From positions 248,001-312,000 of the forward strand of contig NW_025813737.1 of assembly GCF_021917145.1 (NCBI RefSeq): a DNA stretch of 64,000 nucleotides. The letters run 5' to 3'. Below, piece by piece: positions 8,881 to 55,800 of this stretch. Source of the stretch: Hypomesus transpacificus (taxonomy: Eukaryota > Chordata > Actinopteri > Osmeriformes > Osmeridae). A model generated the notes under the pieces. That model worked only from the letters and a program-made list of their open reading frames with translations, searched no databases and was not told the DNA's origin. Position 1 is the first letter of the stretch, and the number at the start of each line of letters is the position of its first letter. The position numbers were made by a program, and so were the translations under genes.

Positions 8881-8961
8881 AGGGTTAGGGTTAGGTTGGG
8901 GTTGGGTTAGGGTCAGGGTTAGGGGGGGTTAGGGTTAGGGTTGGGGTTGGGGTTAGGGTTT
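8881..8961 (+). repeat. Interstitial telomeric tract 3
   Basis: TTAGGG with TTGGGG and TCAGGG variants. It is attached to a TAR-B copy broken within the unit, which suggests telomere repeats added to a broken end. Confidence 0.88.
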
Positions 8962-9407
8962 TAAGTCTGAAAATTCTCGTCACCGAACAAGTCGGGATAG
9001 AGTGAGTGCACGGGCATCTACCAGAGCCACACAGGATCTCAACACGCCGGGACAGGGGCTAGGCCCCTCCAGGAACCCAAAGGGAACCCAGGTCGGGTGT
9101 CCAGTGGAACGCAAGCCACCCGACCTCCGGAGTGGCAGAACACTCAGAGGGACAGCATGAAACAGAGGTCGGGCACACATGGATGGACAGTCTCCGTATC
9201 CACTCAGGCACGCCAGTGAAGCAGTGAGCTCAGGTGTGTGGGGAGGTGAGGAGAAAGTTTAGTATTTACCGTAGAGTAGGAGGTACAGGTGGGGGTGGGG
9301 GGAGGCCTTAGGGAGATGGATAGAGCCCGTCGGGCCCAGTCACAGAGGCAGACGGAGGCATGGGTCCTGACGGTGGACAGGCTCATGGTGGATGGAGGGG
9401 AGCGCGC

Positions 9408-9965
9408 GTATAGGGCTCTTGCCTCCGTGGATGGGATGGAGGGGAGCAGGCTTAAAGGTGCCGTACCTCCAAAATGGAGGGGGGCGCACTTAAAGGGCTC
9501 ACGCCTCCCTAGATGGGGGGCAGGGCGTTTAAAGGGTCCGCGCCCCCGCGGGCGGCCGGGAGCACGCTTAAAGGGCCCGTGTCACACGGAAGGAGGGGAG
9601 CGCGCTTAAAGGTGCCGTACCTCCAAAATGGAGGGGGGCGCGCTTAATGGGCTCACGCCTCCCTAGATGGGGGGGAGGGCGTTTAAAGGGTCCGTGCCCC
9701 CGCGGGCGGCCGGGAGCACGCTTAAAGGGCCCGTGTCACACGGAAGGAGGGGAGCGCGCTTAAAGGTGCCGTACCTCCAAAATGGAGGGGGGCGCACCTA
9801 AAGGGCTCACGCCTCCCTAGATGGGGGGGAGGGCGTTTGAAGGGTCCGCGCCTCCGCGGACGGCCGGGAGCACGCTTAAAGGGACCGTGTCACACGGAAA
9901 GAGGGGAGCGCGCTTAAAGGGCCCGTGCCTCCATGGATGGAGGGGGGGCGCTCTTAAAGGGCTCA
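9408..9965. repeat. 154-bp higher-order minisatellite
   Basis: Three full periods of 154 bp (starts 9451, 9605, 9759), each built of four diverged subunits of about 38 bp that carry a (C/G)TTTAAAGG or CTTAAAGG core and a short GC-rich inverted repeat. It lies in the 3' part of the SGNH-only element. Confidence 0.85.
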
Positions 9966-10073
9966 TGCAGGGGAGCGCGTGTTGAGGTCCCGCGCTCACC
10001 CTGAGATGGGATGGCGTCGGCGGGGGTCCCGTGCTAGCAGCCACGGTCGTGGCGAAGCACAGGATCCCAGTGA

Positions 10074-11456
10074 TTAAAAGAAAGGGGTCCAGTGGGCGAG
10101 CACGGCACGGGCCGTGGACGCTGTCCAATGGATATTGTCCAGCAGGGTATGGAAGGAGGCAGCTGGGAGGAGGGGGATGACGGGACTGTTGGCCGCTAGG
10201 AAGCGGTTAAGGAGAGTGATGTTGTCCCTCTCCTGGCGCGGCAAACCCGGGTCTCCGTTTATAAGAGGAACCAAAACGGAGGCCCGAGGGAAGGTGGCGC
10301 GCGCCCGCCGAAGCATCACATCCGCCTCAGGGTGTGAGTAGGCGGGGGGTGAGCCACGGTTGTTCAGCCCGAAGGACAGAATCAAACATCTGACCTGCAA
10401 GTTGGGGACCGCAACACTGTTGATGATCCCAGTGGCGTGCTTAATCTTGGCCCCGGGGTAGCAGTCCACCTGAACGTCCCCGGACAGGACAGCCGGGAGG
10501 CGGTTCAGGTTGGAGTCCCCGAGGATGAGGATTGGGCGGGTGGGGGTGATGGACCAGTCCTTCTTAAGGCCGTGGACATGGCGAGTGAAGAGGGGGAGCG
10601 GGCGTGCCTCCGCCGGGCGCCCCGTAGGCGCCATACTACGGGGAGTGGGAACTAGAGAGGGAGCGGCCATGGTGGTGATGGGTGGGGAAGGGGAGGGTAG
10701 GGGGGTGGAGGTGCGAAGGAGGGGGGTCCCGGCCGCAAGAAGAGCGGGTGCGGCGGGGACAGGAGCAGGCGGGGTGGGGACCGGCGTCCGCATCTCCTCC
10801 GCAAAGATGGCCTCCAGTCCCTCAAGGCCTGAAAGCAGGCCAGGGGTGTGGGAGGGGGAAGAAAGGGAGGCCAGGAGAGGCTGGGAAAAGGGATGATGCT
10901 GTACCTCAAAATCACTGACATGGTCAGCCAGGAGGAGGTCATCGCTGGCCCCCGTCAGGTCCAGGCCAGCGGTGTCATACACTGGAGAGTCGGTGGTGGG
11001 TGGTGGGGGGGCTACGAGGGGCCCCGTGCCAGTAACCGGGGGCCCACAATCCATGCCCGATTCCCGGTCCACGGCAAGGTCAAGAGGATTGACCGGGGGG
11101 GTGGAGGGGGGTGGGGGGGAGGGGGGTAGAGGGGTGGTGGAGGGGGTCATAGGGGGGGCGGGGTGTAGGATGGGAGGTATGGTGGAGGAGGTGGGAGGGG
11201 AGGGGGGTGGGGCTAGGGTGGGAGGGGGGGAGGAGGGGGAGGAGGAGGTCGTGGTCGAAGCGTGCGTCACGTCCATGGGGGTGTCGCCCGCGTCCCTGGC
11301 CAGCGGTGCCTCCGGAATACTAAAGAGGACCGACAAGGACCTGCGGGACGTCGAGGTGGAGGCGTAGGGTGCTGCGGCGGCCTTCCTTGCCGACACGGGG
11401 GCAGCCCAAGTGACGGCAGGGGCCGCCGGGAACACCACGCTAGGCAGGAGGGCCAT
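10074..11456 (-). CDS. SGNH/GDSL-like hydrolase, proline-rich N-terminus
   Basis: 460 residues from ATG. Residues 1-290 are low-complexity, rich in Pro, Ser, Thr and Ala. Residues about 305-460 form an SGNH-hydrolase-like domain: block I LILGDSN with the likely nucleophile Ser, block II CYPGA, block III SFGLNN with the Asn, and block V DNIHWT with the His. The layout matches the C-terminal part of ORF1 in the PLEs of this window (12461-17673, 41410-46526), but the sequence is clearly diverged. The frame remains open upstream of the ATG to the telomeric tract, so the true N-terminus may be missing. Esterase ORFs are known in ORF1 of some LINEs (CR1-like) and in bdelloid telomeric PLEs; substrate and role are unknown. 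No slippery heptamer occurs near its stop, and no ORF2 follows. Confidence 0.72.
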   Translation of the reverse strand: MALLPSVVFPAAPAVTWAAPVSARKAAAAPYASTSTSRRSLSVLFSIPEAPLARDAGDTPMDVTHASTTTSSSPSSPPPTLAPPPSPPTSSTIPPILHPAPPMTPSTTPLPPSPPPPSTPPVNPLDLAVDRESGMDCGPPVTGTGPLVAPPPPTTDSPVYDTAGLDLTGASDDLLLADHVSDFEVQHHPFSQPLLASLSSPSHTPGLLSGLEGLEAIFAEEMRTPVPTPPAPVPAAPALLAAGTPLLRTSTPLPSPSPPITTMAAPSLVPTPRSMAPTGRPAEARPLPLFTRHVHGLKKDWSITPTRPILILGDSNLNRLPAVLSGDVQVDCYPGAKIKHATGIINSVAVPNLQVRCLILSFGLNNRGSPPAYSHPEADVMLRRARATFPRASVLVPLINGDPGLPRQERDNITLLNRFLAANSPVIPLLPAASFHTLLDNIHWTASTARAVLAHWTPFF

Positions 11457-11497
11457 AGCCAGTTGCAGTGTCCTCTGGGGGACCGGGGTACCCCAGA

Positions 11498-11551: not shown

Positions 11552-12436
11552 TGGCAATAGTGACGAGGAAACACCCTGTGGGACCCCGACGGGACCACAG
11601 TTCAGGTGAGACCCCATTATGGCACGCGCACCTGAAAACCCTCTCACTCCAACCCCTGAAATGGAATAAAGAATATATTCTAAAAGTCTAAAAGAACTGA
11701 TTTGCAAGCACTAGTCTGTCGGCTCAAGAGCTAAACAATAGGAGTCTGACAGTATTAGCATCCCACAGGGTTGACATACTGTTGTCCGAAGACTTTCCTC
11801 CTAATATTGAACCAAAATACTGAAGTATGGACCGGAAATTCTTTGGGTGGGGGTGGCGGGGGGAGAGAGCTGGAGGGTGGTGAGAGGGTGGGGGGAAGAG
11901 AGCTGAAGGGTGGTGCGGAAAGGGGTGGGGAAAACAATGAGGGAAGTGTGAGAATCTATATATCTACGATATGACCATACAGAGTCGACACCCACAGGGC
12001 GAGGAACACTGTTGCCCACAGGGCTTTAGTCAGCCTCTACCTACCATCCAAGGGGTAATTCCCAGGATGGGAGGAGAGAGTAAAAAAAGGGGGGGGGGGA
12101 ATGGGGGGTGGCGGGGGCGGGGGTTGGCCGGGGGCGGGGAAAGGGGTGGGGGGTGGCGGGGGCGGGGGTTGGCCGGGGGCAGGGAAAGGGGTGGGGGGTG
12201 GCGGGGAGCGAGAAGGGAGTGCGGGGGGGGTTTAGGGGAGGTGTTGAGAGGGATCATAGTCTTCATCCAATATCCTGTGTTCAAGTCCTCTTCCAACATC
12301 CTGTGTCAAAGTCTTCTTCAAATGTTGTTGTCAAACCTGACCTTTCCATTAGTCTTCATCCAATGTCCAAGTCCTCTTCAACTGTTGTGCTTTCTTGTTG
12401 TCAAACCTGACCTTTTTAGCAAATAGGAGCCCGTCA
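11552..12436 (-). repeat. TAR-A block (type 2), truncated
   Basis: Begins TTGGCAATAGTGACGAGG and shares the CCTGTGGGACCCCGACGGGA core with type 1. Contains a G-rich tract (12088-12235, strong G-quadruplex potential on the + strand) and fragments of the 93-bp repeat. It ends abruptly at GAGCCCGTCAG, where TTAGGG starts; other copies continue there. Confidence 0.8.
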
Positions 12437-12460
12437 GGGTTAGGGTTAGGGTTAGGTTAG
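12437..12460 (+). repeat. Interstitial telomeric tract 5
   Basis: GGGTTAGGGTTAGGGTTAGG, directly abutting the 3' end of PLE copy 1. Confidence 0.88.
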
Positions 12461-12742
12461 ATAAGAGATCTCAACCCCTTGCAGGGTTGGAGTTGCACTG
12501 GCACTAGCTCATTGTGCTGGACTGTGGAGACCTATTGTTCCTGTAAAGATGTGAAGATGAAAGAATAATTTTTATGGAGATTTGAAGGTCTGTAAGGTAA
12601 GTGTTTTTGGTAAGTATAGTGCACATTGTTCGTCCTCAATGAGGGTGCAATAAACTAATGTGACATTCTTTTCTTTCTATTCCCCCAGGTGAATCCTACA
12701 ACATTGAACGCAGCAAAAGAGGTAAGTGCAACTGCATTCTGG

Positions 12743-12884
12743 AGCTGGGATCTCCCACATGGCAGGGCAACAAGCGCCCAACACAAATGTAATAAATCAT
12801 AATTCATAGCAATATTATTACAACAGAAAACATATATATATATATACATATATATGAAGCCCTGCCATGTGGAAGATCCCAACT
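12743..12884 (-). promoter_or_regulatory. Conserved 3'UTR hairpin of PLE copy 1
   Basis: The arms 12743-12768 and 12859-12884 can form 26 consecutive base pairs (two of them G-U) enclosing a 90-nt AT-rich loop. It lies about 90 nt after the ORF2 stop. The homologous hairpin at 41797-41936 pairs through compensatory changes. It may be a recognition structure for the reverse transcriptase; that role is inferred. Confidence 0.8.
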
Positions 12885-12975
12885 ACCTGTAACGTCTACA
12901 GATATCCCCAGGGACAACAAAGTAAGATTTTTTAAAAAACACTCCTTTATGTTTAATCGGAACCTGTTTGGATTT

Positions 12976-15198
12976 TTAATATTTCTCATTTAGCCCTAAT
13001 GGGTCAATTGTTCTTAAAAGATGAATCCAGGTTCTCTCTGCCTTTTGTCTTTGAGTTTTTGTCCACTCTTTCTGGCTCTCCAGACCCTCAATCCCCATAT
13101 TGCTAACCCCATGCAATGCAAAGTGCCGGTATAGGACCGTCTCCTTGTTTCCTCTCCTGACCTGATACCTGTGCTGTTTAAAACGGATCTCCATGGAGTA
13201 TTTGGATTCTCCAATGTACAGTTTCTGGCAACTCGAGCATCTAATTGCGTACACCACATTGTAAGTTTTAAAGTTGATGTTTTTCCTTATTGGTACCCCC
13301 CTCCCAGAATGTCTATTTCCAACATAGACATCCTGGTGGAAATGTTCTTGTTCTGTTAGGGATACCTTAGGTTTCTTATTTAGGCTCGAGTGTACCAGTT
13401 TGTCTTTCAGGTTTTTATTCCTTCTGTATGCAGAGATCAACTTAAAAGAACCCAGGTCCTCCAGGGTCTCCTGGGCCTGTCCAAGGTTGTGCCTTAATTG
13501 GCCACCCAAACGTCCAAGAGGACGAGAGAACGTCGTGACCACAGGTATAATTTTTTTCTCATCATCTTTCACCACATATTTTCCATTTGTTTGAAACACC
13601 CCTCTCACTTCGCTCTTTATCCCCCTCAGGAACCTCCGAGAATATCCCCGAGGCCTTAAGGCTTTAAAGAGGACCGATGTCGCCTCCTCCACATCCTCCA
13701 GGTGAGTACAAATGCGATGGAATCTGATAAGTTGTGATTTTACCAGACCTTTATATGTATGCTTGGGATGATAACTATTTTTGTGGAGCAGAGCATGTCT
13801 ATCTGTTTCCTTAAAGAAAACCTTGGTAGCTAATTTTTTTATTGTTGCACCCAAACTGGATGTAAAAAATACCTGTGTGTCTAGAAATTCCAACGTTTCT
13901 CTCTGGATGTTGTGTGTTATCTTGATGGCCGGATGATGTGTATTTAAGACCTCTAAGAATTCTTTGAAACTCTCCATATCTCCCTCCCAGATACCGAAGA
14001 TGTCATCAAGGTACCTCAAGTACAGTGACGGCAGATGGCGACATTTTACAAATGCTGATTCTTCCCACCCGCACATATACAAATTTGCATAGGCCAGGGC
14101 AAATTTCTTGCCCATCGCTGTACCATGAATCTGGAGGTAATATTTATTGTTGAACTCAAAGTCATTCCGGTCCAGGCTCATCTTTAAAAGTTCTAAAATA
14201 AAGGCATCAGGTCTTCCTACAACAGGAAATTTATTAAAGGCAGCTCTAATTGCCTGCAGGCCCAGAGTCGTGTCTATGTTGGTGTATAGTGAGTTGATGT
14301 CTATGGAAAACAAAAACGCATCGGCTGAGACTGAAATTAACCCAACTTTCTCCACAAAATCATACGTATCCTTTATGTAAGAAGCATGTCTGTGTGAGAG
14401 TGGGTTAATGTGCGAGTCCAGATACTCAGCGATGTTAGACGACTCTGAGCCACAGTCACTTACTATTGGTCGGCCACAGGGAACCCGGCCCGGGACAGTC
14501 CATTTATCAAGGGCCTTGTGTATCTTAGGGAGCAGATAGAAAACCCTTGGCCTGGGAACATCCGGTCCCAACAGGTAAGACATTTGCTTTGATGTTATTA
14601 TGTCAGCCTGAAACATTTCACACAAGACGAAGCGAATCATGATCTGTGTCTCGGGCTGCATTGAATGTAATAAAGGTGTATAATGTTCTCTGTTGGCCAA
14701 TTGTTTTTCTGCTTCCAAAAGATACTGAGTCCTGTCCATAATCACAATTTGTGACCCCTTATCTGCCGGTTTGATTACCAGAGCCGGGTTTTCTGCCAGA
14801 GTCTTGATGGCTTGGAGTTCCCCCGTACTCAGATTGTAAGTCTGCTCCGGCATTGGTCTAAAGGCCCAAAGAGCTTCCAGATCTTTCTGGATAAGGGTTT
14901 CAATTGTGTTAGCCACCCTCTGTGGCACCCAGCTAGACGGGTCCGTGAAGGGTGTATGGACATATTCATTTTCATAATTAAAATGATCTAACAGTTTTAA
15001 TCTCCTATGATAAATATGGAGGTCTCGGCGTAATTCCCTGCGGTCTGGCTGCCTTGGAGTAGGAATGAAGGTAAGTCCCAATTCCAGCACTTTTTTCTCG
15101 ACCTCATTCAGTCTATAAGACCTTGAGAGGTTCATAATGTTGGATGATGGAGCTGTATTATCACACTCGTCTCCATTTAGTTTAAAAATTCCAGCCAT
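12976..15198 (-). CDS. PLE ORF2: reverse transcriptase with C-terminal GIY-YIG endonuclease
   Basis: 740 residues, intact. The N-terminus has the PLE hallmark NLSRSYRL..VLELGLTFIPTP (residues 23-48). RT motifs: VIKPADKGSQIVIMDR (141-156), GRPIVSDCGS (242-251), motif A SIDINSLYTNI (298-308), motif B GTAMGKKFALAYAN (359-372), motif C RYLDD (395-399), then EFLDTQVF. The C-terminus (about 645-735) is a GIY-YIG nuclease: VVYAI..CxxC..KLYIGES..R..H, with the CxxC insertion typical of PLEs. PLE RTs are the closest relatives of telomerase RT. Motif B has Leu at residue 368 where the second copy has the usual Pro, so activity is uncertain. The start ATG lies 22 nt inside the end of ORF1; -1 frameshifting from ORF1 is the likely expression route (see findings). 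Confidence 0.93.
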   Translation of the reverse strand: MAGIFKLNGDECDNTAPSSNIMNLSRSYRLNEVEKKVLELGLTFIPTPRQPDRRELRRDLHIYHRRLKLLDHFNYENEYVHTPFTDPSSWVPQRVANTIETLIQKDLEALWAFRPMPEQTYNLSTGELQAIKTLAENPALVIKPADKGSQIVIMDRTQYLLEAEKQLANREHYTPLLHSMQPETQIMIRFVLCEMFQADIITSKQMSYLLGPDVPRPRVFYLLPKIHKALDKWTVPGRVPCGRPIVSDCGSESSNIAEYLDSHINPLSHRHASYIKDTYDFVEKVGLISVSADAFLFSIDINSLYTNIDTTLGLQAIRAAFNKFPVVGRPDAFILELLKMSLDRNDFEFNNKYYLQIHGTAMGKKFALAYANLYMCGWEESAFVKCRHLPSLYLRYLDDIFGIWEGDMESFKEFLEVLNTHHPAIKITHNIQRETLEFLDTQVFFTSSLGATIKKLATKVFFKETDRHALLHKNSYHPKHTYKGLVKSQLIRFHRICTHLEDVEEATSVLFKALRPRGYSRRFLRGIKSEVRGVFQTNGKYVVKDDEKKIIPVVTTFSRPLGRLGGQLRHNLGQAQETLEDLGSFKLISAYRRNKNLKDKLVHSSLNKKPKVSLTEQEHFHQDVYVGNRHSGRGVPIRKNINFKTYNVVYAIRCSSCQKLYIGESKYSMEIRFKQHRYQVRRGNKETVLYRHFALHGVSNMGIEGLESQKEWTKTQRQKAERTWIHLLRTIDPLGLNEKY
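15147..15186 (-). promoter_or_regulatory. Predicted -1 ribosomal frameshift signal, PLE copy 1
   Basis: On the minus strand T TTA AAC (15186-15180) sits in the ORF1 frame just before its TAA (15179-15177). After a 3-4 nt spacer, ATGGAG (15176-15171) pairs with CTCCAT (15152-15147), with an inner GTGT/ATAC stem. A -1 slip would continue exactly in the ORF2 frame. Confidence 0.7.
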
Positions 15199-17083
15199 AG
15201 TTTAAAAATTCTGTCTGCAGTTTCCGGAGTCCAATGGACCGGGTCCCTTGGCATCACATTAAAATAGCGCGTCTCCAAGACAGGTAAATATTCACAACTT
15301 TTAACAATATCCTCATTAAATCTCCTCAGTAGGCTCTTTTCTAAGTCACCCAGCCTGTCTGAGAAATGGATCTGTGCTACATAGATGATAGCATTTGGAA
15401 ATCCTGTGTCACACACCGCTAGGAGTCGTCGCATCTGTTTCAGTAATGTATCAGGTACATTCTTCTTTAAACAGTTCACCAGGCCTACAGAAAGGATCAC
15501 CTTTTCCACTTCCAGCTGGGGAGCTAGCTTTGCTATTACTCCCCTTAGGTGATCACAAGAGGCCCCTGGGAAACTGTCTACCTGAATGTTGTTATTTTCA
15601 AAGGTAGGTATTTTTGCGAGGTTGGAATCTCCTATAAACAGTATTGGTTTTGTGACTTCCAGGTTCCATGCAAAGATCTTTCTTTGGACATTTGGATGTC
15701 TTACAGGTTCCACACGAGAGGCGGTAGCCAATGGCAGCTGGCAGCGAGGACTAAGGTAAGTGGGGCTGGGGGGGTGTGGGGAGGGGCGGGAACGGGGAAC
15801 GGGACGGTTGAGGTTAGGGTCAGGTGACAGGGTAGAGGTCAAGTCCCCATTCATTCCCAAACAGTTGGGGTTAGGCACCGGGGGCAGAGTGGAGGTAAGA
15901 TCCCCATCTGTCCCTAGTGGAGGAGAGGCCCAGGAAAGGGAGGGGTTGGGGTTAGGTAAGGGGGAATTTGGGAAGAGGCCCCCATTGGCCACCATCATAG
16001 TCTCTCGCTGTCCCATAGTGCCCTCTGGAGGACCACTCAGGTCATTAGGACAAGGAGAAGAATTAAGACTCTCACTAATGTGGACTGCCACATTACTGAG
16101 TTGGGGAGGATTTTGGTTTGTTGCCCCCCTCTCCCCACCCCCCTCACCTGCAGAGCGCTCGCCTGCAGAGTGAGAATCCCCTCCTGGAGGACCCCGTGCA
16201 GCCTCAATTTCTGAGGAGGTGTCCTCCATTTGGAGATTAAAGGGTATGGGAGTCTGGGGTGGCAACTCCATCATAACAACGCTAGTCGGCCTAGATGACA
16301 TTAAGGCCTCCTTAAAGGTAAGTAGCATTGGCTCTGTTGTTATTGTTGTTCTTCCTCCCTCTAATGGTCTAATTTTATACCTTTCAGTCCCCAGAGGACC
16401 ACCAGAGGTCGCCAAATCCCCTTTCCCAGGTAAGTTGTTATTCCCATGGGTAGGGGTATTTTTTGGACGTAACCTACTCAGGTTGGTCCTCTGTTTTTTA
16501 GGGATAGGTGTTCCCTGGATGTAAGGGGTCTGGCCCTCCCTCCCTGGGGAGCAGAGCAACGGCGGGAAGTCCACACTGTCAGAGTTCAGTGGGTTTGGAA
16601 TAGCTGGTATTTCCATTGGAGTTATCAGCATTGTACGCAGAGTATCCACAGATGTACTAGTGAATCTTCTTTTGTATTTCAGCTTACTCCAACCCACCGC
16701 TACCTGAAGGGCCCTTTCATCCAGTACTGGTAAGTCTCCCAAAATTGAACCCATTACCCCATCGTAGTGGACCCGTAATGTTTCCAATACATCCCTCAAC
16801 CACTTTGAGTATCATTTTTCACTCTTTCTGTGGTATTGAGCGATGGCGAGGATGGTTTGATAAAATATGCTAATTTTTGTACCTGTCTTTCCATCCCCTT
16901 AGGACAGACTCCTGTCAAAATAGAATGACTCAGAATCTCAGAGTGATGTAATGCTTGGAGAAGCTTGAAGTATTTCTTGGTGAGTGGGATATTGAGAGGA
17001 TTCGATGTATAATTCCTTCCCTCTGTTATGTTTCCCCCCAGGGCATTTCCCCCTTCAGCGGGTTGCTCCTGGCTCACCTCCAT
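15177..17083 (-). pseudogene. PLE ORF1 with SGNH hydrolase domain, one frameshift
   Basis: Starts at ATG 17083 and reads about 95 residues, including NIPLTKKYFKLLQALHHSEI, until a stop at 16798-16796. The homologous text then continues in the next frame to 15177. The second copy has CCACCTTTGAG where this one has CCACTTTGAG (about 16801), so a 1-bp deletion broke the frame. The middle part (about 16500-15750) is Pro/Ser/Thr-rich and variable. The C-terminal 155 residues are SGNH-like: FIGDSN (nucleophile Ser), SFPGAS, SVGLVN (Asn), DPVHWTP (His). An esterase-type ORF1 is unusual for vertebrate PLEs as far as I know; in CR1-like LINEs and bdelloid Terminons similar domains occur. The function, perhaps lipid or membrane handling or protein scaffolding, is open. 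Confidence 0.8.
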
Positions 17084-17673
17084 ACTCCACTAGTGATTGG
17101 AAAACTGCTAAAAGAATTGCCCAAACTTGAGCTAGACAGTCCACAATTAATTCTAGTGCCTTAGAAGAATATAAGTGCACAGACATTAAGAATTAAAAAT
17201 AAAACTATCTCATGTGGTCATTTCCTGTTAGTCCTTTTATTCTTGCACATATAAAGTTTGCTTTAAGAAAAGCATTTTTTGGAGAACTTTTCCTTAATAA
17301 AGGCAGAAAAGAACTTTCTCCCTTGCACAATCGGGATCCCTTTCTGGGTTGGCCTAGATACAATTCCCCTATATTTGGCCAGTCACTGTAGCACTGCACA
17401 CTGTGTTTTCTTGCAACCAAAACCAAGGGCTCTAGGCCAAACAAAAGAAAGGGTTTGTGTAGGCACACTGCACTGCACTCCACACGCACACAGAACCACA
17501 CCAAAAACTCACACCAGTTTCTGGCCAGTTTTTAGGGGAACTCAGCCCTGCCAACCCAACTAGGTTTCCCCAGTGGAAGATGTGCAAGAATTGCGTTTTC
17601 ATAAAAAAATAAAATAAGGACTAAAAAAGTTCAAGGCCAAACTACTTTGACCCTGAATAAAACCACAAGAAGA

Positions 17674-17706
17674 GGGTTAGGGTTAGGGTTAGGGGGGGGT
17701 TAGGTT
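17674..17706 (+). repeat. Interstitial telomeric tract 6
   Basis: GGGTTAGGGTTAGGGTTAGGG plus a G run, starting at the 5' border of PLE copy 1. Confidence 0.88.
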
Positions 17707-41376: not shown

Positions 41377-41409
41377 GGGTTAGGGTTAGGGTTAGGGTTA
41401 GGGTTAGGT
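41377..41409 (+). repeat. Interstitial telomeric tract
   Basis: Five perfect TTAGGG units directly before the 3' end of PLE copy 2. Confidence 0.92.
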
Positions 41410-41796
41410 TTCAGAAAGGTCTCAACCCATTACTGGGTGGGAGTTTGCGCTGGCGCAAGTACAATGTGCTTGATTGCTATGCTTTATTATTCCCTTAGAA
41501 AAAGTAAAGCAGGAAATTTGTAATCTATCAATATATAAGAAGAATTGAAGGTGTTTTTCAGGTAAGTCTTGAGGTAGGTTTTACACAATCTATTCTAAGG
41601 TGAGTACTATTGGTTCTTCTAGGTATTATTATGTATAATTTTTGTAAACAATGTTTTAACTGTTTTTCTTCTCCCTAGGAATCCATCCTTTCACCGAGAA
41701 CTGTGATTGGCCGCTTGTCATCAATTCGCTCCACACGGTAAGTATTTTTGAGTATTTGTTACAGTAAAAATTAATAAGTGCAACTGTAATTTGGAG

Positions 41797-41936
41797 TTGG
41801 GATTCAACCATATTGCAGGGCAACCAAGCCTAACCACACAAATATAATAAATCAAAATTCATAGTATCATATTACAACAAGAAATATATATTTTAACATA
41901 TATATATAAGAAAACTTGACAATATGGGAATCCCAA
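41797..41936 (-). promoter_or_regulatory. Conserved 3'UTR hairpin of PLE copy 2
   Basis: Arms 41797-41815 and 41920-41936 pair over 17 bp with a 2-nt bulge around an AT-rich loop, at the same distance after ORF2 as in copy 1. At least three stem pairs are changed on both sides relative to copy 1. Confidence 0.78.
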
Positions 41937-42033
41937 AAGGTCCGTATGAGCTACCGATACTCTCCAGGCGGAGTCGAACTGTATCCTCCTACCTCTACTT
42001 TACTGTATATCACAAAGGGACATGTAATACATT

Positions 42034-44256
42034 TTAATATTTTTCATTCAGACCCAACGGGTCGATGGTTTTCAATAAATGTATCCATGTTCTTTCTTCT
42101 TTTTGTCTTACAGCTCTGGACCAATCCTTCTGGCTTTCCAGTCCTTCAATTCTCATATTTAAAACCCCATGTGCTATAAAATGTCTATATAGGACCGTAT
42201 CTTCATTCCCTCTCCTGACTTGGTATTTATGTTGTGTAAGGCGAGTTTGCATGGAGTGTTTAGTTTCCCCTATGTATAGTTTTTGGCACCTCGCACACCT
42301 AATGGCATAGACCGTATTAGGAGTCCCAAAAGCTATTTGGTTCCTAATCGGTACCCCTCTACCTGAATACCTATTCCCAATATAGGTATTCCAGTTAAAG
42401 TGATTATTTTCCTCGGGAGATACCGCCGGTTCTCCATTTAGGTTGGAATGCACCAGTCTATCCTTGAGATTCTTGTTTCTCCTATATGCAGAAATTAGTT
42501 TAAAACGCCCCAAGTCTCCCAAGTCTGCCTGGGCCTGTTGGAAATGAAGCCTCAATTGACCACCCAAACGTCCCAAAGGTTGTGAGTATGTTGTCACCAC
42601 AGGTATCATTTCTTTAGCTTCCCTCTCCACCACATACCTTCCATTCACTTCGAATATTGTTCTTACTTCCTGTTTTATTTCCCTCAGGAACCGCCGAGAG
42701 TAACCCCGAGGCCTGAGGGCTTTAAACAGGATGGATGTCGCCTCCTCCACATCACTCAGGTAAGTACAAATACGATGGAATCTTATTAACTGTGATTTTA
42801 CTAGTCCTCTGTAGGTATGTTTAGGATGATAGCTCTGTTTGTGAAGCAAGGCATGTCTATCGGTCTCCTTAAAGAAGACTTTTGTAGCTAAAGTTTTATT
42901 GGCTTCCAAACCGGGTATAAAGAAAACCTGTGTGTCTAAGAACTCCAGTTTTTCCTTTTGGATGTTATGTGTAATTGTAATTGTGGGATGATGAGAGTTC
43001 AAAATATCTAAAAACACTAAAAATTGCTCCATGTCCCCTTCCCAGATGCCGAAGATGTCATCCAGGTACCTAAAGTACAGCGAAGGTAGGTGAGCACACT
43101 TTAAAAAGGCTGATTCCTCCCAGCCACACATATAAAGGTTGGCGTAGGCTGGGGCAAATTTCTTGCCCATCGCCGTGCCATGGATCTGCAAATAGTGCTT
43201 TTTGTTGAACTCAAAATCATTACGAGAGAGGCTTATTTCCAATAGTTCTAAAATGTAATCGTCAGGCCGCCCAGAGACAGGGAATTTACTAAAAGCAGCT
43301 CGAACTGACTGTAAGCCCAGAGTCGTGTCTATGTTGGTATATAGAGAGTTAATGTCTATAGAAAATAGAAAGGCATCTGCAGAAACTGAAATATTCCCAA
43401 CTTTCTCAACAAAATCATACGTGTCTTTAACAAAGGACGCATGTCTTTGTGAAAGTGGGTTTATGTGAAAGTCCAGAAATTCTGCGATGTTTGATGACTC
43501 CGAACCACAGTCACTAACAATAGGTCTACCACAAGGAATTTGACCAGGGACGGTCCACTTATCCAGGGCTTTATGCATCTTCGGCAGCAGATAGAACAGC
43601 CTCGGTCTTGGGACGTCCGGTCCCAACAGGTAGGTCATTTGCTTTAATGTTATTATTTTTTCCTGATACATTTTACATAGAATGTTTTTAATCATGTTTT
43701 GTGTTTCAGGTTGCATAGAGTGGAGCAGCGGCGCATAATGATTCCTGTTGGTAAGTTGTCTATCTGCCTCCAAAAGATATTGAGTCCTATCCATTATTAC
43801 TATTTGTGAGCCCTTGTCTGCCGGTTTGATGACAATAGCTGGATTGTTTGCCAGAGTGTTAATGGCTTGCAGTTCTACTGTATTCAAATTATGATTTATT
43901 TCCGGTTTTGGTCTGTAGCGTTTCAAGCATTCCAGATCTTTTTGGACAAGGGTTTCAACAGGAGCTGCCACCTCCCGTGGTACCCAACTGGATGGATCAG
44001 TGAAAGGTACGTGAGGGAAGTGGCTCTCATATTTGAAATGATCTAATAATTTCAATCTCCTGTGATAGGTGTGGAGGTCCCTGCGTAGTTCCCTGCGGTC
44101 GGGCTGCTTTGGAGTAGGGATGAAGGTAAGTCCCAATTCCAGCACCCTCATCTCAACCTCACTGAGTCTGTAAGACCTCGAGAGGTTCATGATGTTAGAT
44201 ACGGGAGTTGTGTTGTCACACTCCTCTCCCTCTAAAAGTTTAAATGGTCCCTCCAT
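42034..44256 (-). CDS. PLE ORF2: reverse transcriptase with GIY-YIG endonuclease
   Basis: 740 residues from ATG, intact and of the same length as copy 1. Motifs: FIPTPKQPDRRELRRDLH near residue 45-60, IVIKPADKGSQIVIMDR, motif A SIDINSLYTNI, motif B GTAMGKKFAPAYAN with the usual Pro, motif C RYLDD, LEFLDTQVFF, and a C-terminal GIY-YIG domain (TVYAIRCARCQKLYIGET, with the CxxC). All key residues seen in active PLEs are present, so this is the better candidate for an active copy. It overlaps ORF1 by 25 nt in the -1 frame. Confidence 0.94.
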   Translation of the reverse strand: MEGPFKLLEGEECDNTTPVSNIMNLSRSYRLSEVEMRVLELGLTFIPTPKQPDRRELRRDLHTYHRRLKLLDHFKYESHFPHVPFTDPSSWVPREVAAPVETLVQKDLECLKRYRPKPEINHNLNTVELQAINTLANNPAIVIKPADKGSQIVIMDRTQYLLEADRQLTNRNHYAPLLHSMQPETQNMIKNILCKMYQEKIITLKQMTYLLGPDVPRPRLFYLLPKMHKALDKWTVPGQIPCGRPIVSDCGSESSNIAEFLDFHINPLSQRHASFVKDTYDFVEKVGNISVSADAFLFSIDINSLYTNIDTTLGLQSVRAAFSKFPVSGRPDDYILELLEISLSRNDFEFNKKHYLQIHGTAMGKKFAPAYANLYMCGWEESAFLKCAHLPSLYFRYLDDIFGIWEGDMEQFLVFLDILNSHHPTITITHNIQKEKLEFLDTQVFFIPGLEANKTLATKVFFKETDRHALLHKQSYHPKHTYRGLVKSQLIRFHRICTYLSDVEEATSILFKALRPRGYSRRFLREIKQEVRTIFEVNGRYVVEREAKEMIPVVTTYSQPLGRLGGQLRLHFQQAQADLGDLGRFKLISAYRRNKNLKDRLVHSNLNGEPAVSPEENNHFNWNTYIGNRYSGRGVPIRNQIAFGTPNTVYAIRCARCQKLYIGETKHSMQTRLTQHKYQVRRGNEDTVLYRHFIAHGVLNMRIEGLESQKDWSRAVRQKEERTWIHLLKTIDPLGLNEKY
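44203..44244 (-). promoter_or_regulatory. Predicted -1 ribosomal frameshift signal, PLE copy 2
   Basis: T TTA AAC (44244-44238) lies in the ORF1 frame one codon before the TAG (44234-44232). After a spacer of about 7 nt, GGGAG (44230-44226 on the minus strand) pairs with CTCCC (44207-44203) around an 18-nt loop with an inner GTGT/ACAC stem. A -1 slip enters the ORF2 frame. Confidence 0.7.
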
Positions 44257-46290
44257 AAATTAAAGATCCTATCGGCAGTTTCAGGTGTCCAGTGGACTGG
44301 ATCGTGTTGCATCACCCGAAAGTGACGCTCTTCCAAAACAGGTAAGAAGTGGCATCTTTCAAAAATTATTGTGTTTAATTTCCTCAACAGGCTCTGCTGG
44401 TTCTTACTCAGCCGATCAGAAAAGTGGATCTGCGCCACATACACTGTGGCATGTGGGAACACCCTCTTGCAGACCCGTAATAGTCCCTGAAGCTGTTTCA
44501 GTGCAGTGTCTGGTTCCTGTTCAGAAAGACAGTTGACTAGGCCTACCGAGAGTAACACCTTCTCTGTTTCCAGGTGGGGTGTTAGCTTTGCTATTACCCC
44601 TCTCAGATGTTCACAGTTGGCTCCCGGAAAACTGTCTACTTGGATGTTAGCATCTTCAAAGGTAGGTATTTTGGAGAGATTAGAGTCTCCTACAACTATT
44701 ACGGGTTTTAAGACCTCCAAGTTCCAATCATTTATTTTTCTCCGCCTGTTAGGATGTCTAACGGGTTCCCTCCGACGGGTGGACGTGGACGGCGGCTGGC
44801 AGCACGGATTCAGGTAAGTGGGATCTGGGGAATTGGGGGAGGGGGGGGAGGGGAGGGGAAAGGTTGGGGTTAGGAATGGAGGGGGGAGGGTTGAGGTTAG
44901 GACCAGGGGTCTGGACCAGGATAGGCCTCCCATCAGTTCCCATAGAGGCACTGGGTTTAAGGATGGAAGGGGGAGGGAAAGGGATGGGGGTGGGGGTGGG
45001 GTTGGGGTTAGGGGCAGGGGACGGAAAGGGAATAAGGGTGGGGTTGGGGTTAGGGGCAGGGGACAGGAAAGGAATAGAAGCCCCAGAAAACCCCTTAGAT
45101 GAATCGGGTTGGGATGTTGGGGGCAAGATGGGGGTAGAATCCCCAACCGTCCTTGTCGTCCCATCCCGCCGTACCACTGCCAGCCCAGGACAGTTATTCT
45201 GATCCTGTGATACTGGGGAAGAAGTGATGCTATCTGTGGTAAAGGCCACCGCACCATTGACAGTCGGGGGATGCAGATTTGACCCTTCAACCTCCATCTC
45301 TGTGTCCCCCCATGGAGGACCCTGTGCAGCCTCTTCATCTGAGGAGGAATCCTCCATTCGGAGATCAAAAGAGATGGGGTTTAAAGGTGACCCCTCCAAA
45401 ACCGTCCCATTCTCCCTAGGTGTTAATAGGGCCTCCCTATAGGTAAGTGGAGTAGTCTTGGTAGTAGATGTTATGGATCCTATTACCGACTGTCTAACAT
45501 TGTGTACTTCCACCACAGTAGACCGTCTCGAGGACCCTGGAGTCATCCCCCCTTCCCCCCCAGGTAAGTATTTGTTCCCACGGATGGGGATGTCTTGAGG
45601 ACTCAACTGAGCAACGGAGGACTGCCCAAGGGGATCCAACACAGGATGCCCCTGGCTACCTGTTGGAGGTCGTGACCTGCTCAGGTTGGACCTCTGTTTC
45701 CTAGGGGCTAGTGTCCCCTGGATGTAGGGGGTCTGTCCCCTAGCTCCCTCAGCAACAGGTAGAGGTGGGAAGCAACCACTGTCAAGGCTTGGTGGGGTTG
45801 GAGAAGATGATATTTCTCCTGGGGCTATTAGCATTGTCCGCAATGTGTCCACAGATGTATTTGTGAATTTACGTTTATACCGTAGCTTGCTCCAACCCAC
45901 CGCCACCTGCAGGGCCTTCTCGTCCAGTACAGGTAAGTCCCCCAGAATTGCCCCCATCACTTCATCATAATGAACCCGTAAGATCTCTAAGTTCCCCTCC
46001 AACCACCTTTGAGTGTTAAGTTTAACTTTTTCAGTGGTATTCAAGGAGGGTGAAGATGGTTTGATGAAAGATGCCAATTTGTTGACCTGTTTTTTCATCC
46101 CAACAGGACAAGATCCTGTTAGAATTGATTGATCCAGAATTTCAGAGTGGTGTAATGCCTGTAGGAGTTTGAAATATTTTTTGGAGAGTGGAATGTTGAG
46201 ATTATTAATTCTCTCATTACCACCCCTTCTCCCTAAGGCTTCCCCCCTTCCAGTTGGGGTGGGGGGGATCTGCCTATGGCCCCACTCCAT
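44232..46290 (-). pseudogene. PLE ORF1 with SGNH hydrolase domain, one frameshift
   Basis: From ATG 46290 (MEWGHRQ; the frame runs further up without ATG). The N-terminal block INNLNIPLSKKYFKLLQALHH to SKLRYKRKFTN is well conserved with copy 1, then a long Pro/Ser-rich region with runs of NPNP. In the G/C homopolymer tract at 44834-44861 the frame changes: the upstream frame stops at 44758, while the SGNH part (VVGDSN, SFPGAN, SVGLVN, DPVHWTP) is read in another frame to 44232. The slip is in a run of C/G, so either mutation or a sequencing error is possible. Confidence 0.78.
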
Positions 46291-46526
46291 TTCCCACTGA
46301 ATAAACCGGAAACCACCCGATAGGGATCTCCAAATCCAGGCTGGTACCAAATTTTAAAATTATTTTCCAGTGTCTTAAAATGAATAAGTGCACAGACACT
46401 GAAGAAATCAATAGAATCTTATTTCATGTGGTCTATTCCTATAAGTCCCTTTAATTTTTTGCACATATAAAACTTTAGTTGCTTTTAAGAAAGCATTTTT
46501 TGGAGAACCTTTCCACTTAAAAAAGA

Positions 46527-46590
46527 GGGTTAGGGTTAGGGTTAGGGTTAGGGTTAGGGGTTAGGGTTAGGGTTAGGGTTAGGGTTAGGG
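46527..46590 (+). repeat. Interstitial telomeric tract (long, nearly perfect)
   Basis: Ten TTAGGG units with a single extra G, between the 5' end of PLE copy 2 and the TAR-B array. Confidence 0.95.
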
Positions 46591-47910
46591 AGCAGTTTCT
46601 GAAGACCCCCACGCCAAGCAGTTCAGTACTTCGACCCGCATAGGCTAGGGGTAAATGCACAAGTATCCTAGACCCATGTAGATCATCCATCAGAGGGGGT
46701 AGGGGAATGGACCCCCTCCAGGACCCCAAAGGAGTCCCAGGCCTGTAGACCTTGTCACGCTTGCTACCCGAGGTAAATAAATGCCTAAGCACTAAGAGGA
46801 CGTGAGCAACCGACGGGTACATGGATAACCCACCCCCGTATCCACTTACGGACGTGTGCAAACCACCAGGTCTAAGCAGGAGCATGCTCTGAAGTCTTCC
46901 GTCCCCACAAGTAAGGTAACCCCCGAGGAGGAGAGGTAGGAGACCTCTGGTGTCAAGATTCACGCGTGGGTAGCAGAGGTGACCGGTAACCGTAGCACAT
47001 GCTACATCCGAGTGAAGACACTGGGGGCTCCTCACACCCAATCCTAAGCGCGGAGCGCATCGGCGCGAAGCGCCGATTGCGCGGAGCCAAAGGTGTCCCA
47101 GCGGCAACGGTGATTCTGCGAAGTCCAAACAGGGTCCTCTTGAAGAGTAGTGGCACTGTCGTGAGTGAATGGATGCACATGAGTGTGTGAGTGCGTGCTA
47201 TACCTGTGCCCAGAAGCCAAGTCAATCTGAAAGTCTAAAAAAGGCCTGCCTGAAAAAGAGAGAATAACCTATACCAAAACCAGGGCGTGTTTGAAGAGTA
47301 GAAGACATCTGCACCTCATGTGCACCTGGGGAGAGAGCGGGTTAGTGGACAGGACACACGAGTGCCGTGAAAGCAAAATGGGGGTGCTCAGAAGAAGAGC
47401 ACCGCAGGTGTACATGAGTACAGGAAGGACAGGGCCTGTGAGAAGGGAAAAAGAGACAATGCGTGTGGATGTGGAGATGTGTGTGTGCGAGCGAGAGGAG
47501 AGTGTGAGAGTGTGTAGTAGGCAGAGCAAGAGAGGGGGCTCCTCGGAGCCAAAGCAAGGTTGTAGTCAAGAACGCAGAACTCCACTCCCCGGGCGGTGCC
47601 TCCTGCAGGCCCATGCCAGAACATTAAACAGGGATATGTGAGGTCCTAACCGGCCACGACTGCAGTTTCGCTCTCCTAAGAGCTCATCAGGTGACAAAGT
47701 TATGAAATTAAACCCCCAACGCAGGACAAGGGCCGTTCCTAGGACTATGGACTATCAAGAACTCAGGGGTGACGACCACAAAAAGGGGGGTGTTCGTACC
47801 CCCTGTGTCCGTGGGCGCCCACCAGAATCGGTCATCTCAATTAATCAGCTAGGGAAAAGAGGATAGAGGAGAGAGAGAGAGAATGCACAGAGTAGCAAAA
47901 TGTATGGACA

Positions 47911-47946
<36 letters not shown>

Positions 47947-50516: not shown

Positions 50517-51836
50517 AGCAGTTTCTGAAGACCCCCACGCCAAGCAGTTCAGTACTTCGACCCGCATAGGCTAGGGGTAAATGCACAAGTATCCTAGACC
50601 CATGTAGATCATCCATCAGAGGGGGTAGGGGAATGGACCCCCTCCAGGACCCCAAAGGAGTCCCAGGCCTGTAGACCTTGTCACGCTTGCTACCCGAGGT
50701 AAATAAATGCCTAAGCACTAAGAGGACGTGAGCAACCGACGGGTACATGGATAACCCACCCCCGTATCCACTTACGGACGTGTGCAAACCACCAGGTCTA
50801 AGCAGGAGCATGCTCTGAAGTCTTCCGTCCCCACAAGTAAGGTAACCCCCGAGGAGGAGAGGTAGGAGACCTCTGGTGTCAAGATTCACGCGTGGGTAGC
50901 AGAGGTGACCGGTAACCGTAGCACATGCTACATCCGAGTGAAGACACTGGGGGCTCCTCACACCCAATCCTAAGCGCGGAGCGCATCGGCGCGAAGCGCC
51001 GATTGCGCGGAGCCAAAGGTGTCCCAGCGGCAACGGTGATTCTGCGAAGTCCAAACAGGGTCCTCTTGAAGAGTAGTGGCACTGTCGTGAGTGAATGGAT
51101 GCACATGAGTGTGTGAGTGCGTGCTATACCTGTGCCCAGAAGCCAAGTCAATCTGAAAGTCTAAAAAAGGCCTGCCTGAAAAAGAGAGAATAACCTATAC
51201 CAAAACCAGGGCGTGTTTGAAGAGTAGAAGACATCTGCACCTCATGTGCACCTGGGGAGAGAGCGGGTTAGTGGACAGGACACACGAGTGCCGTGAAAGC
51301 AAAATGGGGGTGCTCAGAAGAAGAGCACCGCAGGTGTACATGAGTACAGGAAGGACAGGGCCTGTGAGAAGGGAAAAAGAGACAATGCGTGTGGATGTGG
51401 AGATGTGTGTGTGCGAGCGAGAGGAGAGTGTGAGAGTGTGTAGTAGGCAGAGCAAGAGAGGGGGCTCCTCGGAGCCAAAGCAAGGTTGTAGTCAAGAACG
51501 CAGAACTCCACTCCCCGGGCGGTGCCTCCTGCAGGCCCATGCCAGAACATTAAACAGGGATATGTGAGGTCCTAACCGGCCACGACTGCAGTTTCGCTCT
51601 CCTAAGAGCTCATCAGGTGACAAAGTTATGAAATTAAACCCCCAACGCAGGACAAGGGCCGTTCCTAGGACTATGGACTATCAAGAACTCAGGGGTGACG
51701 ACCACAAAAAGGGGGGTGTTCGTACCCCCTGTGTCCGTGGGCGCCCACCAGAATCGGTCATCTCAATTAATCAGCTAGGGAAAAGAGGATAGAGGAGAGA
51801 GAGAGAGAATGCACAGAGTAGCAAAATGTATGGACA

Positions 51837-51872
<36 letters not shown>

Positions 51873-54442: not shown

Positions 54443-55762
54443 AGCAGTTTCTGAAGACCCCCACGCCAAGCAGTTCAGTACTTCGACCCGCATAGGCTAG
54501 GGGTAAATGCACAAGTATCCTAGACCCATGTAGATCATCCATCAGAGGGGGTAGGGGAATGGACCCCCTCCAGGACCCCAAAGGAGTCCCAGGCCTGTAG
54601 ACCTTGTCACGCTTGCTACCCGAGGTAAATAAATGCCTAAGCACTAAGAGGACGTGAGCAACCGACGGGTACATGGATAACCCACCCCCGTATCCACTTA
54701 CGGACGTGTGCAAACCACCAGGTCTAAGCAGGAGCATGCTCTGAAGTCTTCCGTCCCCACAAGTAAGGTAACCCCCGAGGAGGAGAGGTAGGAGACCTCT
54801 GGTGTCAAGATTCACGCGTGGGTAGCAGAGGTGACCGGTAACCGTAGCACATGCTACATCCGAGTGAAGACACTGGGGGCTCCTCACACCCAATCCTAAG
54901 CGCGGAGCGCATCGGCGCGAAGCGCCGATTGCGCGGAGCCAAAGGTGTCCCAGCGGCAACGGTGATTCTGCGAAGTCCAAACAGGGTCCTCTTGAAGAGT
55001 AGTGGCACTGTCGTGAGTGAATGGATGCACATGAGTGTGTGAGTGCGTGCTATACCTGTGCCCAGAAGCCAAGTCAATCTGAAAGTCTAAAAAAGGCCTG
55101 CCTGAAAAAGAGAGAATAACCTATACCAAAACCAGGGCGTGTTTGAAGAGTAGAAGACATCTGCACCTCATGTGCACCTGGGGAGAGAGCGGGTTAGTGG
55201 ACAGGACACACGAGTGCCGTGAAAGCAAAATGGGGGTGCTCAGAAGAAGAGCACCGCAGGTGTACATGAGTACAGGAAGGACAGGGCCTGTGAGAAGGGA
55301 AAAAGAGACAATGCGTGTGGATGTGGAGATGTGTGTGTGCGAGCGAGAGGAGAGTGTGAGAGTGTGTAGTAGGCAGAGCAAGAGAGGGGGCTCCTCGGAG
55401 CCAAAGCAAGGTTGTAGTCAAGAACGCAGAACTCCACTCCCCGGGCGGTGCCTCCTGCAGGCCCATGCCAGAACATTAAACAGGGATATGTGAGGTCCTA
55501 ACCGGCCACGACTGCAGTTTCGCTCTCCTAAGAGCTCATCAGGTGACAAAGTTATGAAATTAAACCCCCAACGCAGGACAAGGGCCGTTCCTAGGACTAT
55601 GGACTATCAAGAACTCAGGGGTGACGACCACAAAAAGGGGGGTGTTCGTACCCCCTGTGTCCGTGGGCGCCCACCAGAATCGGTCATCTCAATTAATCAG
55701 CTAGGGAAAAGAGGATAGAGGAGAGAGAGAGAGAATGCACAGAGTAGCAAAATGTATGGACA

Positions 55763-55800
<38 letters not shown>

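What the first reader, a model, noticed from the sequence alone, without database searches (positions are those of the whole stretch)
12437..17706. PLE copy 1 sits in telomeric repeats in the orientation expected for priming on a chromosome end
Seen: the + strand reads TTAGGG repeats, then the antisense of the element from its 3' to its 5' end, then TTAGGG again. If the RT extends the 3' G-rich telomere end using element RNA as template, exactly this polarity results, and telomerase then re-caps the 5' end. Known: endonuclease-lacking PLEs (Athena, Coprina) attach to telomeres in rotifers and fungi, and PLE RT is the sister group of telomerase RT. New here would be a vertebrate PLE with a GIY-YIG domain that behaves this way.
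Basis: partly seen in the sequence, partly recalled or inferred. Interest (0 to 1): 0.9.

Follow-up and report, generated by a model that had tools for sequence, protein, structure and literature searches.

The report
Telomere-building retrotransposons in a fish
A family of jumping genes in what looks like a fish genome appears to attach itself to chromosome ends by carrying a short telomere-matching tag, even though these elements still carry a cutting enzyme that telomere-bound relatives elsewhere have lost.

Summary
Copy 1 (12458-17671, minus strand) and copy 2 (41410-46524) are Penelope-like elements (PLEs) with an SGNH-type ORF1 and an open RT + GIY-YIG ORF2. TTAGGG lies at all four ends, in the stated polarity. 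All exact 3' ends of three families read ACCTAACCC (once CCCTAACCC), then telomeric repeat or a tandem copy: F1 5 of 5, F2 10 of 10, F3 10 of 10. Of 46 ORF2 copies from one search, 36 of the 44 with a readable 3' side show the tag; 5 of the 8 exceptions are fragments with stops. Of 12 visible F1/F2 5' ends, 7 are truncated and joined to telomeric repeat and 5 are full-length in tandem. One contig starts with 2.5 kb of telomere, then a chain of truncated elements. The best reading is end-attachment (HeT-A- or Athena-like), primed by the G-overhang on an element-encoded 3' tag, with telomerase capping the 5' end. It is a new variant: a telomere-specialised PLE that keeps a conserved GIY-YIG nuclease, in a telomerase-positive, fish-like genome. 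The nuclease's role and the priming step are unproven.

The parts
12436..12461 (+). TTAGGG tract at the 3' junction of PLE copy 1; joined to subtelomeric unit S' cut at CCCGTCAG
12449..12457 (-). 3' tag ACCTAACCC (sense) of family F1, also present at the tandem F1 junction where no tract follows
12458..17671 (-). PLE family F1, copy 1; 5'-truncated (starts at about base 405 of 5635)
12976..15198 (-). ORF2, 740 aa: reverse transcriptase + C-terminal GIY-YIG endonuclease
15177..16799 (-). ORF1 with C-terminal SGNH/GDSL-like esterase domain (open frame here is 540 aa; about 636 aa in the C118 copy)
17672..17706 (+). TTAGGG tract joined to the truncated 5' end of copy 1
41380..41408 (+). TTAGGG tract at the 3' junction of PLE copy 2; joined to unit S cut at CCCTGTGGG
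41410..46524 (-). PLE family F2, copy 2; 5'-truncated (about base 793 of 5916)
42034..44256 (-). ORF2 of copy 2 (RT + GIY-YIG)
44232..46350 (-). ORF1 of copy 2 in two overlapping frames, SGNH-like part at 44232-44792
46525..46592 (+). TTAGGG tract joined to the truncated 5' end of copy 2
8959..11496 (-). ORF2-less relative of PLE family F6: SGNH-like ORF (10074-11456) and F6 3' UTR; telomeric tracts on both sides (8881-8963, 11497-11554)
46591..63937 (-). T units (tandem, about 3.9 kb, 99.9% alike): 3' end homologous to PLE family F5, hammerhead-like core; probable non-autonomous relative
63961..64000 (-). 3' end of a PLE of family F3, running out of the window
11554..12435 (-). subtelomeric unit S' (3' end at 11554 beside a TTAGGG tract; cut at 12435)

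Best explanation
These are telomere-specialised Penelope-like retrotransposons. The element ends in ...ACCTAACCC (shown in genomic copies; that the RNA ends there is inferred), which is complementary to the TTAGGG overhang. The 3' G-overhang of a short or broken chromosome end anneals to this tag, and the element's RT extends it, laying down the antisense strand from the 3' end towards the 5' end (inferred from polarity and register). Synthesis often stops early (5' truncation shown). Telomerase then adds TTAGGG to the new end (TERT gene and repeats shown, action inferred), or another element attaches head-to-tail (arrangement shown). Repeated rounds build the subtelomere. Non-autonomous units (S, T, U and the F6 derivative) with the same kind of 3' end are carried along (inferred). 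The GIY-YIG domain is conserved; its step is not known.
For: Exact 3' ends in the whole assembly: F1 5 of 5, F2 10 of 10, F3 10 of 10 carry [A/C]CCTAACCC, followed by telomeric repeat (20) or a tandem copy (5) (places; flanks). Over six families, 46 of 46 readable 3' ends found by anchor have the motif (one more was cut off): 38 tract, 7 tandem, 1 direct. In one search, before four of these were fetched, 37 distinct junctions all had it and 30 of 32 tract junctions continued in phase; the anchors come from copies that had it. The motif stands where no tract follows: F1, F2, F4 and F5 tandem junctions to a common GCCAGAGC start, and one F5 joined straight to a 5'-truncated F3. Of 12 visible F1/F2 5' ends, 7 are truncated, at six different points, and joined to telomeric repeat, and 5 are full-length in tandem. 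In the three cases compared, the inner flank is a cut subtelomeric unit. Contig C27 starts with 2.48 kb of repeat, then 5'-truncated T, tract, 5'-truncated F1, tract, cut S'. Inner tracts are short (median 45.5 nt including the tag, maximum 289). 0 of the 37 TTAGGG clusters listed on C1-C14 has a PLE ORF2 match within 20 kb. TERT RNA-binding domain is present. ORF2 dN/dS is 0.078.
Against: The GIY-YIG domain is conserved, with catalytic-type positions invariant in 5 of 5 aligned families; pure end-priming should not need it. 8 of 44 readable ORF2 copies lack a recognised telomeric 3' end, two of them (C97) with open frames. Six of the 28 tract cases have only the tag plus one or two repeats (15-21 nt). 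C31 and C7 copies lie inside contigs, and C31 holds copies on both strands. Some junctions are duplicated blocks (C69:290 kb and 334 kb share one flank; F4 at C7 and C31; F4 on C27 and C26), so they are not independent. The TTAGGG-cluster comparison uses a capped list. No reads, RNA ends or biochemistry were available.
Confidence: 0.74

Rival explanations
1. The elements insert by GIY-YIG-nicked target-primed reverse transcription into double-stranded telomeric or subtelomeric TTAGGG, not at the free end (compare TRAS/SART and MoTeR elements, recalled; FoTeRs seen in a listing only). The 3' tag gives target specificity.
For: GIY-YIG is present and conserved. The constant register at the 3' junction would also follow from a site-specific nick. 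Telomeric repeats on both sides fit.
Against: In the cases compared, the flanks are not the two halves of one site. Inner tracts have a median of 45.5 nt where random insertion into kilobase arrays should leave long ones on both sides. 0 of 37 listed TTAGGG clusters on C1-C14 is occupied (capped list). Attachment to tandem or truncated PLE ends without a tract.
Confidence: 0.2
2. The PLEs inserted at random long ago. Telomeric junctions come from host break healing and break-induced replication among subtelomeric blocks, and the PLEs are passengers.
For: S and T blocks share TTAGG-containing seams, and duplicated blocks carry PLEs with them.
Against: Three families have all 25 exact 3' ends at the motif. 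The motif persists at tandem junctions in four families. F1 copies about 99% alike have different flanks and 5' cuts.
Confidence: 0.05
3. Assembly artefact of collapsed or chimeric subtelomeric repeats.
For: Small contigs, one ending inside a PLE (C118), no reads available.
Against: The same junction logic recurs on many contigs and in six families with different break points.
Confidence: 0.01

Closest known systems
Athena PLEs and Terminons of bdelloid rotifers (telomere-associated, endonuclease-deficient)
   Same: 5'-truncated copies capped by telomeric repeats, head-to-tail arrays, reverse-complement telomeric stretch at the 3' end, GDSL esterase ORF in some, hammerhead motif (passages of PMC6431247 and PMC3846280)
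   Different: Those lack the endonuclease in the RT element (some carry GIY-YIG-like ORFs apart). Here the RT ORF itself carries a conserved GIY-YIG, F1 and F2 are 5.6 and 5.9 kb, and the host looks like a fish with TTAGGG telomeres and TERT. In Terminons the telomeric stretch directly follows the hammerhead; that was not seen here.
Canonical GIY-YIG PLEs (Poseidon/Penelope, e.g. Poseidon of Anolis)
   Same: RT + C-terminal GIY-YIG in one ORF, tandem arrangement, hammerhead (passages of PMC11167929)
   Different: PLEs of this type are described as inserting rather randomly, preferring AT-rich DNA (passages of PMC12477314 and PMC12031113). These sit at telomeric repeats, carry a telomere-complementary 3' tag and have a separate SGNH-like ORF1.
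PLEs beside integrated herpesvirus AciHV-3 in lake sturgeon
   Same: GIY-YIG PLE bounded by telomere-like repeats next to TE clusters (section 3.4 and passages of PMC12031113)
   Different: Described there as degraded, of a type that integrates at random sites; no polarity, 3' tag or end-attachment in the passages seen. Relationship of sequence not tested.
Drosophila HeT-A/TART/TAHRE
   Same: One-way head-to-tail attachment to chromosome ends, 5' truncation (recalled; PMC5537684 seen in a listing with the start of its abstract only)
   Different: Non-LTR class, in a host that is a telomerase exception. Here a PLE, and TERT is present.

Membership tests
Penelope-like elements | C-terminal GIY-YIG endonuclease fused to RT | tested here: met
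   PF01541 27.6 and 28 bits, cutoff 22.6
Penelope-like elements | telomerase-like RT clade | tested here: inconclusive
   RVT_1 only 19.9 bits in copy 2, cutoff 29.6; no PDB sequence hit; YLDD and motif order read by eye (recalled); structure prediction switched off; no tree made
Penelope-like elements | head-to-tail copies (pLTR organisation) | tested here: met
   C118, C27, C352, C376 tandem junctions
Penelope-like elements | hammerhead ribozyme | tested here: inconclusive
   Hammerhead_1 35.5 bits, cutoff 34, in L027 about 3.7 kb upstream of an F5 ORF2, element 5' end not located; T unit below cutoff; no hammerhead hit in the window copies or in the F1 and F2 loci L009 and L013, only a core-like pattern in F1/F2 5' regions
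Athena/Coprina/Terminon (EN-deficient telomeric PLEs) | no endonuclease in the RT ORF | tested here: not met
   GIY-YIG present and conserved
Athena/Coprina/Terminon (EN-deficient telomeric PLEs) | reverse-complement telomeric stretch at the 3' end | tested here: met
   ACCTAACCC or CCCTAACCC at 46 of 46 readable anchored 3' ends; 25 of 25 in the F1-F3 enumeration
Athena/Coprina/Terminon (EN-deficient telomeric PLEs) | variable 5' truncation capped by telomeric repeat | tested here: met
   7 of 12 visible F1/F2 5' ends; the other 5 are full-length in tandem
Athena/Coprina/Terminon (EN-deficient telomeric PLEs) | phylogenetic placement with Athena/Coprina RT | not tested
   no reference sequences were available in the tools
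HeT-A/TART type | non-LTR element in a host without telomerase | tested here: not met
   GIY-YIG PLE; TERT RNA-binding domain in the genome

The most novel reading that the evidence does not exclude
In a telomerase-positive fish-like genome, a whole guild of endonuclease-bearing PLEs (six families and several non-autonomous partners) has become telomere-specific by encoding a telomerase-template-like ACCUAACCC at the RNA 3' end. It extends chromosome ends alongside telomerase and builds the subtelomeres. The GIY-YIG nuclease is kept for a step at the telomere, so loss of the nuclease is not the way into telomere life.
Probability: 0.6. Interest if true: 0.9.

Novelty: new variant of a known kind. 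Interest (0 to 1): 0.78.

Why it matters
PLE reverse transcriptase is held to share an ancestor with telomerase. [quoted passage not shown] A vertebrate-like case with a conserved nuclease, a short telomere-matching 3' tag and a telomerase gene would be an intermediate state and a tractable system. It lets one test whether the RNA 3' end acts like a telomerase template, how retroelements and telomerase share chromosome ends, and how fish subtelomeres arise. It may also explain the telomere-bounded PLEs noted beside an integrated sturgeon herpesvirus.

Tried and rejected
Rejected: a simple insertion of the PLE into one subtelomeric unit (the right flank is not the continuation of the left flank for either copy). 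Rejected: a chance TTAGGG neighbour. Looked for relatives in viral contigs and phages: none. Hammerhead in window copies 1 and 2: no hit; weak matches there to histone stem-loop, microRNA, lncRNA and other families were set aside. RT by PDB sequence search: no hit. Structure prediction: switched off. Whole-assembly enumeration of the F5 3' end: machine busy, not obtained; F4 and F6 were not enumerated. Matches with 2 mismatches to the F1, F2 and F3 anchors (3, 4 and 1) were taken as chance against the reversed-pattern controls (0+1, 12+12, 0+1) and not fetched.

Rows dropped before counts: of the 46 ORF2 elements that I grouped by eye from the 63 matches, one (C1) was not fetched and one (C376:41 kb) was cut 3 bases into its junction (L053), leaving 44. 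The 8 without a recognised telomeric 3' end: C97:31 kb and 53 kb (open frames, near-identical to each other, no 3' end found within about 4.0 and 2.0 kb), C82:151 kb (F4 sequence ends short of the motif), and C7:7.2195 Mb, C82:218 kb, C10, C14 and C9 (fragments with stops). In one search only 60 of 102 candidates were scored, so copy numbers are lower bounds. The anchors were taken from copies that had the motif, so that tally is not independent of its definition; the F1-F3 enumeration is the cleaner test. The ten 5' junctions displayed were picked because they had been seen beside tracts; the F1/F2 count of 12 covers all F1/F2 5' ends that lie inside fetched DNA. 5' ends of most F3-F6 copies were not examined.
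Full report
OBSERVATION. Copy 1 occupies 12458-17671 on the minus strand, with TTAGGG at 12436-12461 and 17672-17699. Copy 2 occupies 41410-46524 with TTAGGG at 41380-41408 and 46525-46592. Both ORF2s are 740 aa without internal stops, 78% identical to each other, with GIY-YIG above Pfam's cutoff. All telomeric tracts found in the window are G-rich on the + strand; none is reversed.

WHAT THE FLANKS SAY. Copy 1 follows subtelomeric unit S', cut at CCCGTCAG and joined to GGTTAGGG; the uncut unit runs on as CCCATCAGCATTAACATCC. Copy 2 follows unit S, cut at CCCTGTGGG and joined to TTAGGG; the uncut unit runs on as CCCTGTGGGACCCCGACGGG. In neither case does the right flank continue the left one: it is a new S' unit, or a T unit. 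An insertion into one site does not give this. A broken or eroded end that received telomeric repeats, then a PLE, then telomeric repeats and later blocks does.

HOST GENOME. The window is C69:248001-312000 of an unnamed 437 Mb, 376-contig assembly. A telomerase RNA-binding domain is present on C4. Its best PDB matches are 4lmo (284.5 bits) and 4o26 (254.4); the next group (7qxa, 7trd, 7bg9) scores about 133. From memory 4lmo and 4o26 are pufferfish and medaka TERT and the next group is human, so the host is most likely a teleost; this rests on recall for the species names.

ALL COPIES. The ORF2 search gave 63 matches, with 60 of 102 candidates scored. I grouped them by eye into 46 elements; 44 had a readable 3' side. 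28 have the tag followed by telomeric repeat, 7 the tag followed by a head-to-tail copy, 1 the tag directly on a 5'-truncated PLE, and 8 show no recognised telomeric 3' end. Of the 28, six have only 15-21 nt including the tag. The exceptions are listed in Tried and rejected. Orientation: among the 28 loci, minus-strand copies have only G-rich tracts and plus-strand copies only C-rich ones (21 of the 28 have any tract), and among the 20 loci no G-rich tract lies on the sense strand. Loci overlap, so these are not 48 independent cases.

ENUMERATION WITHOUT ORF2. To avoid choosing by ORF, exact matches to the 3' ends of three families were listed for the whole assembly: F1 at 5 places, F2 at 10, F3 at 10. 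Every one was read: F1 4 tracts and 1 tandem; F2 6 tracts and 4 tandems; F3 10 tracts. That is 25 of 25 at the motif. Tandem copies and the two C69 copies of F2 are not independent insertions.

THE 3' TAG. In six families whose 3' ends otherwise differ, the last bases are ACCTAACCC (F6 and one F3 copy: CCCTAACCC). 46 of 46 readable anchored ends have it. In one search, 37 of 37 distinct junctions had it and 30 of 32 tract junctions continued in the same phase. At tandem junctions no tract follows, yet the tag is there: F1 and F2 ...ACCTAACCC-A-GCCAGAGCC, F4 ...ACCTAACCC-T-GCCAGAGCC, F5 ...ACCTAACCC-GCCAGAGC. So the tag most likely belongs to the element, and so does a common 5' start GCCAGAGC. 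A single telomeric repeat added at each tandem seam is the other reading. An RNA ending in ACCUAACCC can pair with a GGGTTAG(G) overhang; that pairing is inferred, not shown.

THE 5' ENDS. Full-length F1 is 5635 bases and F2 5916. Twelve F1/F2 5' ends lie inside fetched DNA: 7 are truncated (about bases 405, 1017 and 4829 of F1; 793 twice, 1169 and 1593 of F2) and directly preceded by telomeric repeat, and 5 are full-length and joined to the tag of the next copy. The two cuts at 793 are one duplicated event. F1 copies about 99% identical in ORF2 differ in 5' cut, in inner tract length (24, 87, 136, 230 nt) and in host flank.

A REAL CHROMOSOME END. Contig C27 begins with about 2.48 kb of CCCTAA. 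After it come a T unit cut at its 5' end, a tract, an F1 PLE cut at its 5' end, a 230-nt tract, and an S' unit cut at AATGTTG. This is the chain expected from successive attachments. Inner tracts have a median of 45.5 nt including the tag (maximum 289), far shorter than this terminal array, which suggests attachment to ends that had nearly lost their telomere. Later shrinkage of internal tracts could also contribute.

IS IT THE SEQUENCE OR THE END? The first 100 listed rows of exact (TTAGGG)4 fall into 37 clusters on contigs C1-C14. None has a PLE ORF2 match within 20 kb. A nuclease that aimed at TTAGGG anywhere should have used some of them.

PROTEINS. ORF2 dN/dS between F1 and F2 is 0.078 (0.053 in the RT part). 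In the GIY-YIG part synonymous sites are saturated while pN is 0.15. The GIY-YIG positions Y650, Y661, G663, R672, E721 and N737 are invariant in all five aligned sequences (five families), down to 42% identity (catalytic roles recalled). So the nuclease is probably used. ORF1 ends in an SGNH-like domain: Pfam GDSL matches are below cutoff, but a profile of three window sequences matches PDB 4c1b, an ORF1-encoded protein, at E 1.1e-5 (recalled as the zebrafish L2 ORF1 esterase). A hammerhead passes Rfam's cutoff 3.7 kb upstream of one F5 ORF2; whether it lies inside the element is open. T units carry a similar core below cutoff.

NON-AUTONOMOUS PARTNERS. T units end like F5 (81% over 69 bases). 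The element at 8959-11496 has an SGNH-like ORF and a 3' UTR 97% identical to F6 but no ORF2. S and S' units mostly end in ACCTAAC(C)(C); the S unit at 5827 reads ACCAAACCC. That they ride on PLE enzymes is inference.

MECHANISM AND RIVALS. End-attachment explains the cut flanks, the register, the one-way orientation, the telomere-capped truncations, the tandems and the terminal chain. The conserved GIY-YIG is its weak point. A nick-primed variant inside terminal telomeres remains possible (0.2).

COMPARISON. It works like Athena/Terminon PLEs: telomeric 5' caps, head-to-tail arrays, reverse-complement telomeric 3' stretch, GDSL ORF (passages of PMC6431247; PMC3846280; PMC5408684). It is not a member of that endonuclease-deficient group as defined, because the nuclease is present. 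It shares the ORF2 plan of GIY-YIG PLEs such as Poseidon (outline, abstract and passages of PMC11167929). The nearest printed sighting found is in lake sturgeon: GIY-YIG PLEs bounded by telomere-like repeats, called degraded and of a randomly inserting type (section 3.4 and passages of PMC12031113). No paper proposing end-attachment for a nuclease-bearing or vertebrate PLE was recognised in the listings of seven searches of the held library; most listed papers were not opened, most subscription papers are not held, and the two founding papers on telomeric PLEs were not readable.

Noticed in passing
21559-37122: A unit of about 6-7 kb, with a 452-aa ORF that has weak tyrosine-recombinase-like N-terminal Pfam matches (below cutoff) and 103-bp and 68-bp tandem repeats; the ORF occurs three times (21680, 27916, 34911), over 98% alike in the long matches, all in the same direction as the PLEs.
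   Followed up: no
46591-63937: Tandem T units carry a hammerhead-like core five times (Rfam HH9 E 0.0022 in the one unit scanned, below cutoff) and may act as retrozyme-like partners of the PLEs.
   Followed up: partly
46454-46500: A histone-3'-stem-loop-like match (E 0.0055, below cutoff) on the sense strand of copy 2 close to its 5' cut; copy 1 has a similar stem by eye.
   Followed up: no
44758-45368 and 15780-15960: The ORF1 linker is rich in Pro and Asn and encoded by degenerate CCCTAA-like DNA (CCTAACCCCAACCCC), as if telomeric repeat had been taken into the coding region.
   Followed up: no
L012:2600-2684 and L020: A further 3' end (GATGGGATTTCTCAGACATCTAACCC), called U here, also runs into telomeric repeat: another subtelomeric element.
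   Followed up: no
L009 (sense position 9528): A tandem junction of a further, uncounted family (...CACAAACCTAACCCA-GCCAGAGCC) on C118.
   Followed up: no
L020-L022 (C7:7.22 Mb and C31:0.74 Mb): Two internal places share the same S and F4 junctions, which suggests a moved or fused subtelomere, or an assembly question.
   Followed up: no
37146-40200: About 1-kb S-type units, 99.5% alike, repeated with TTAGGG seams; two are cut at the same point.
   Followed up: no
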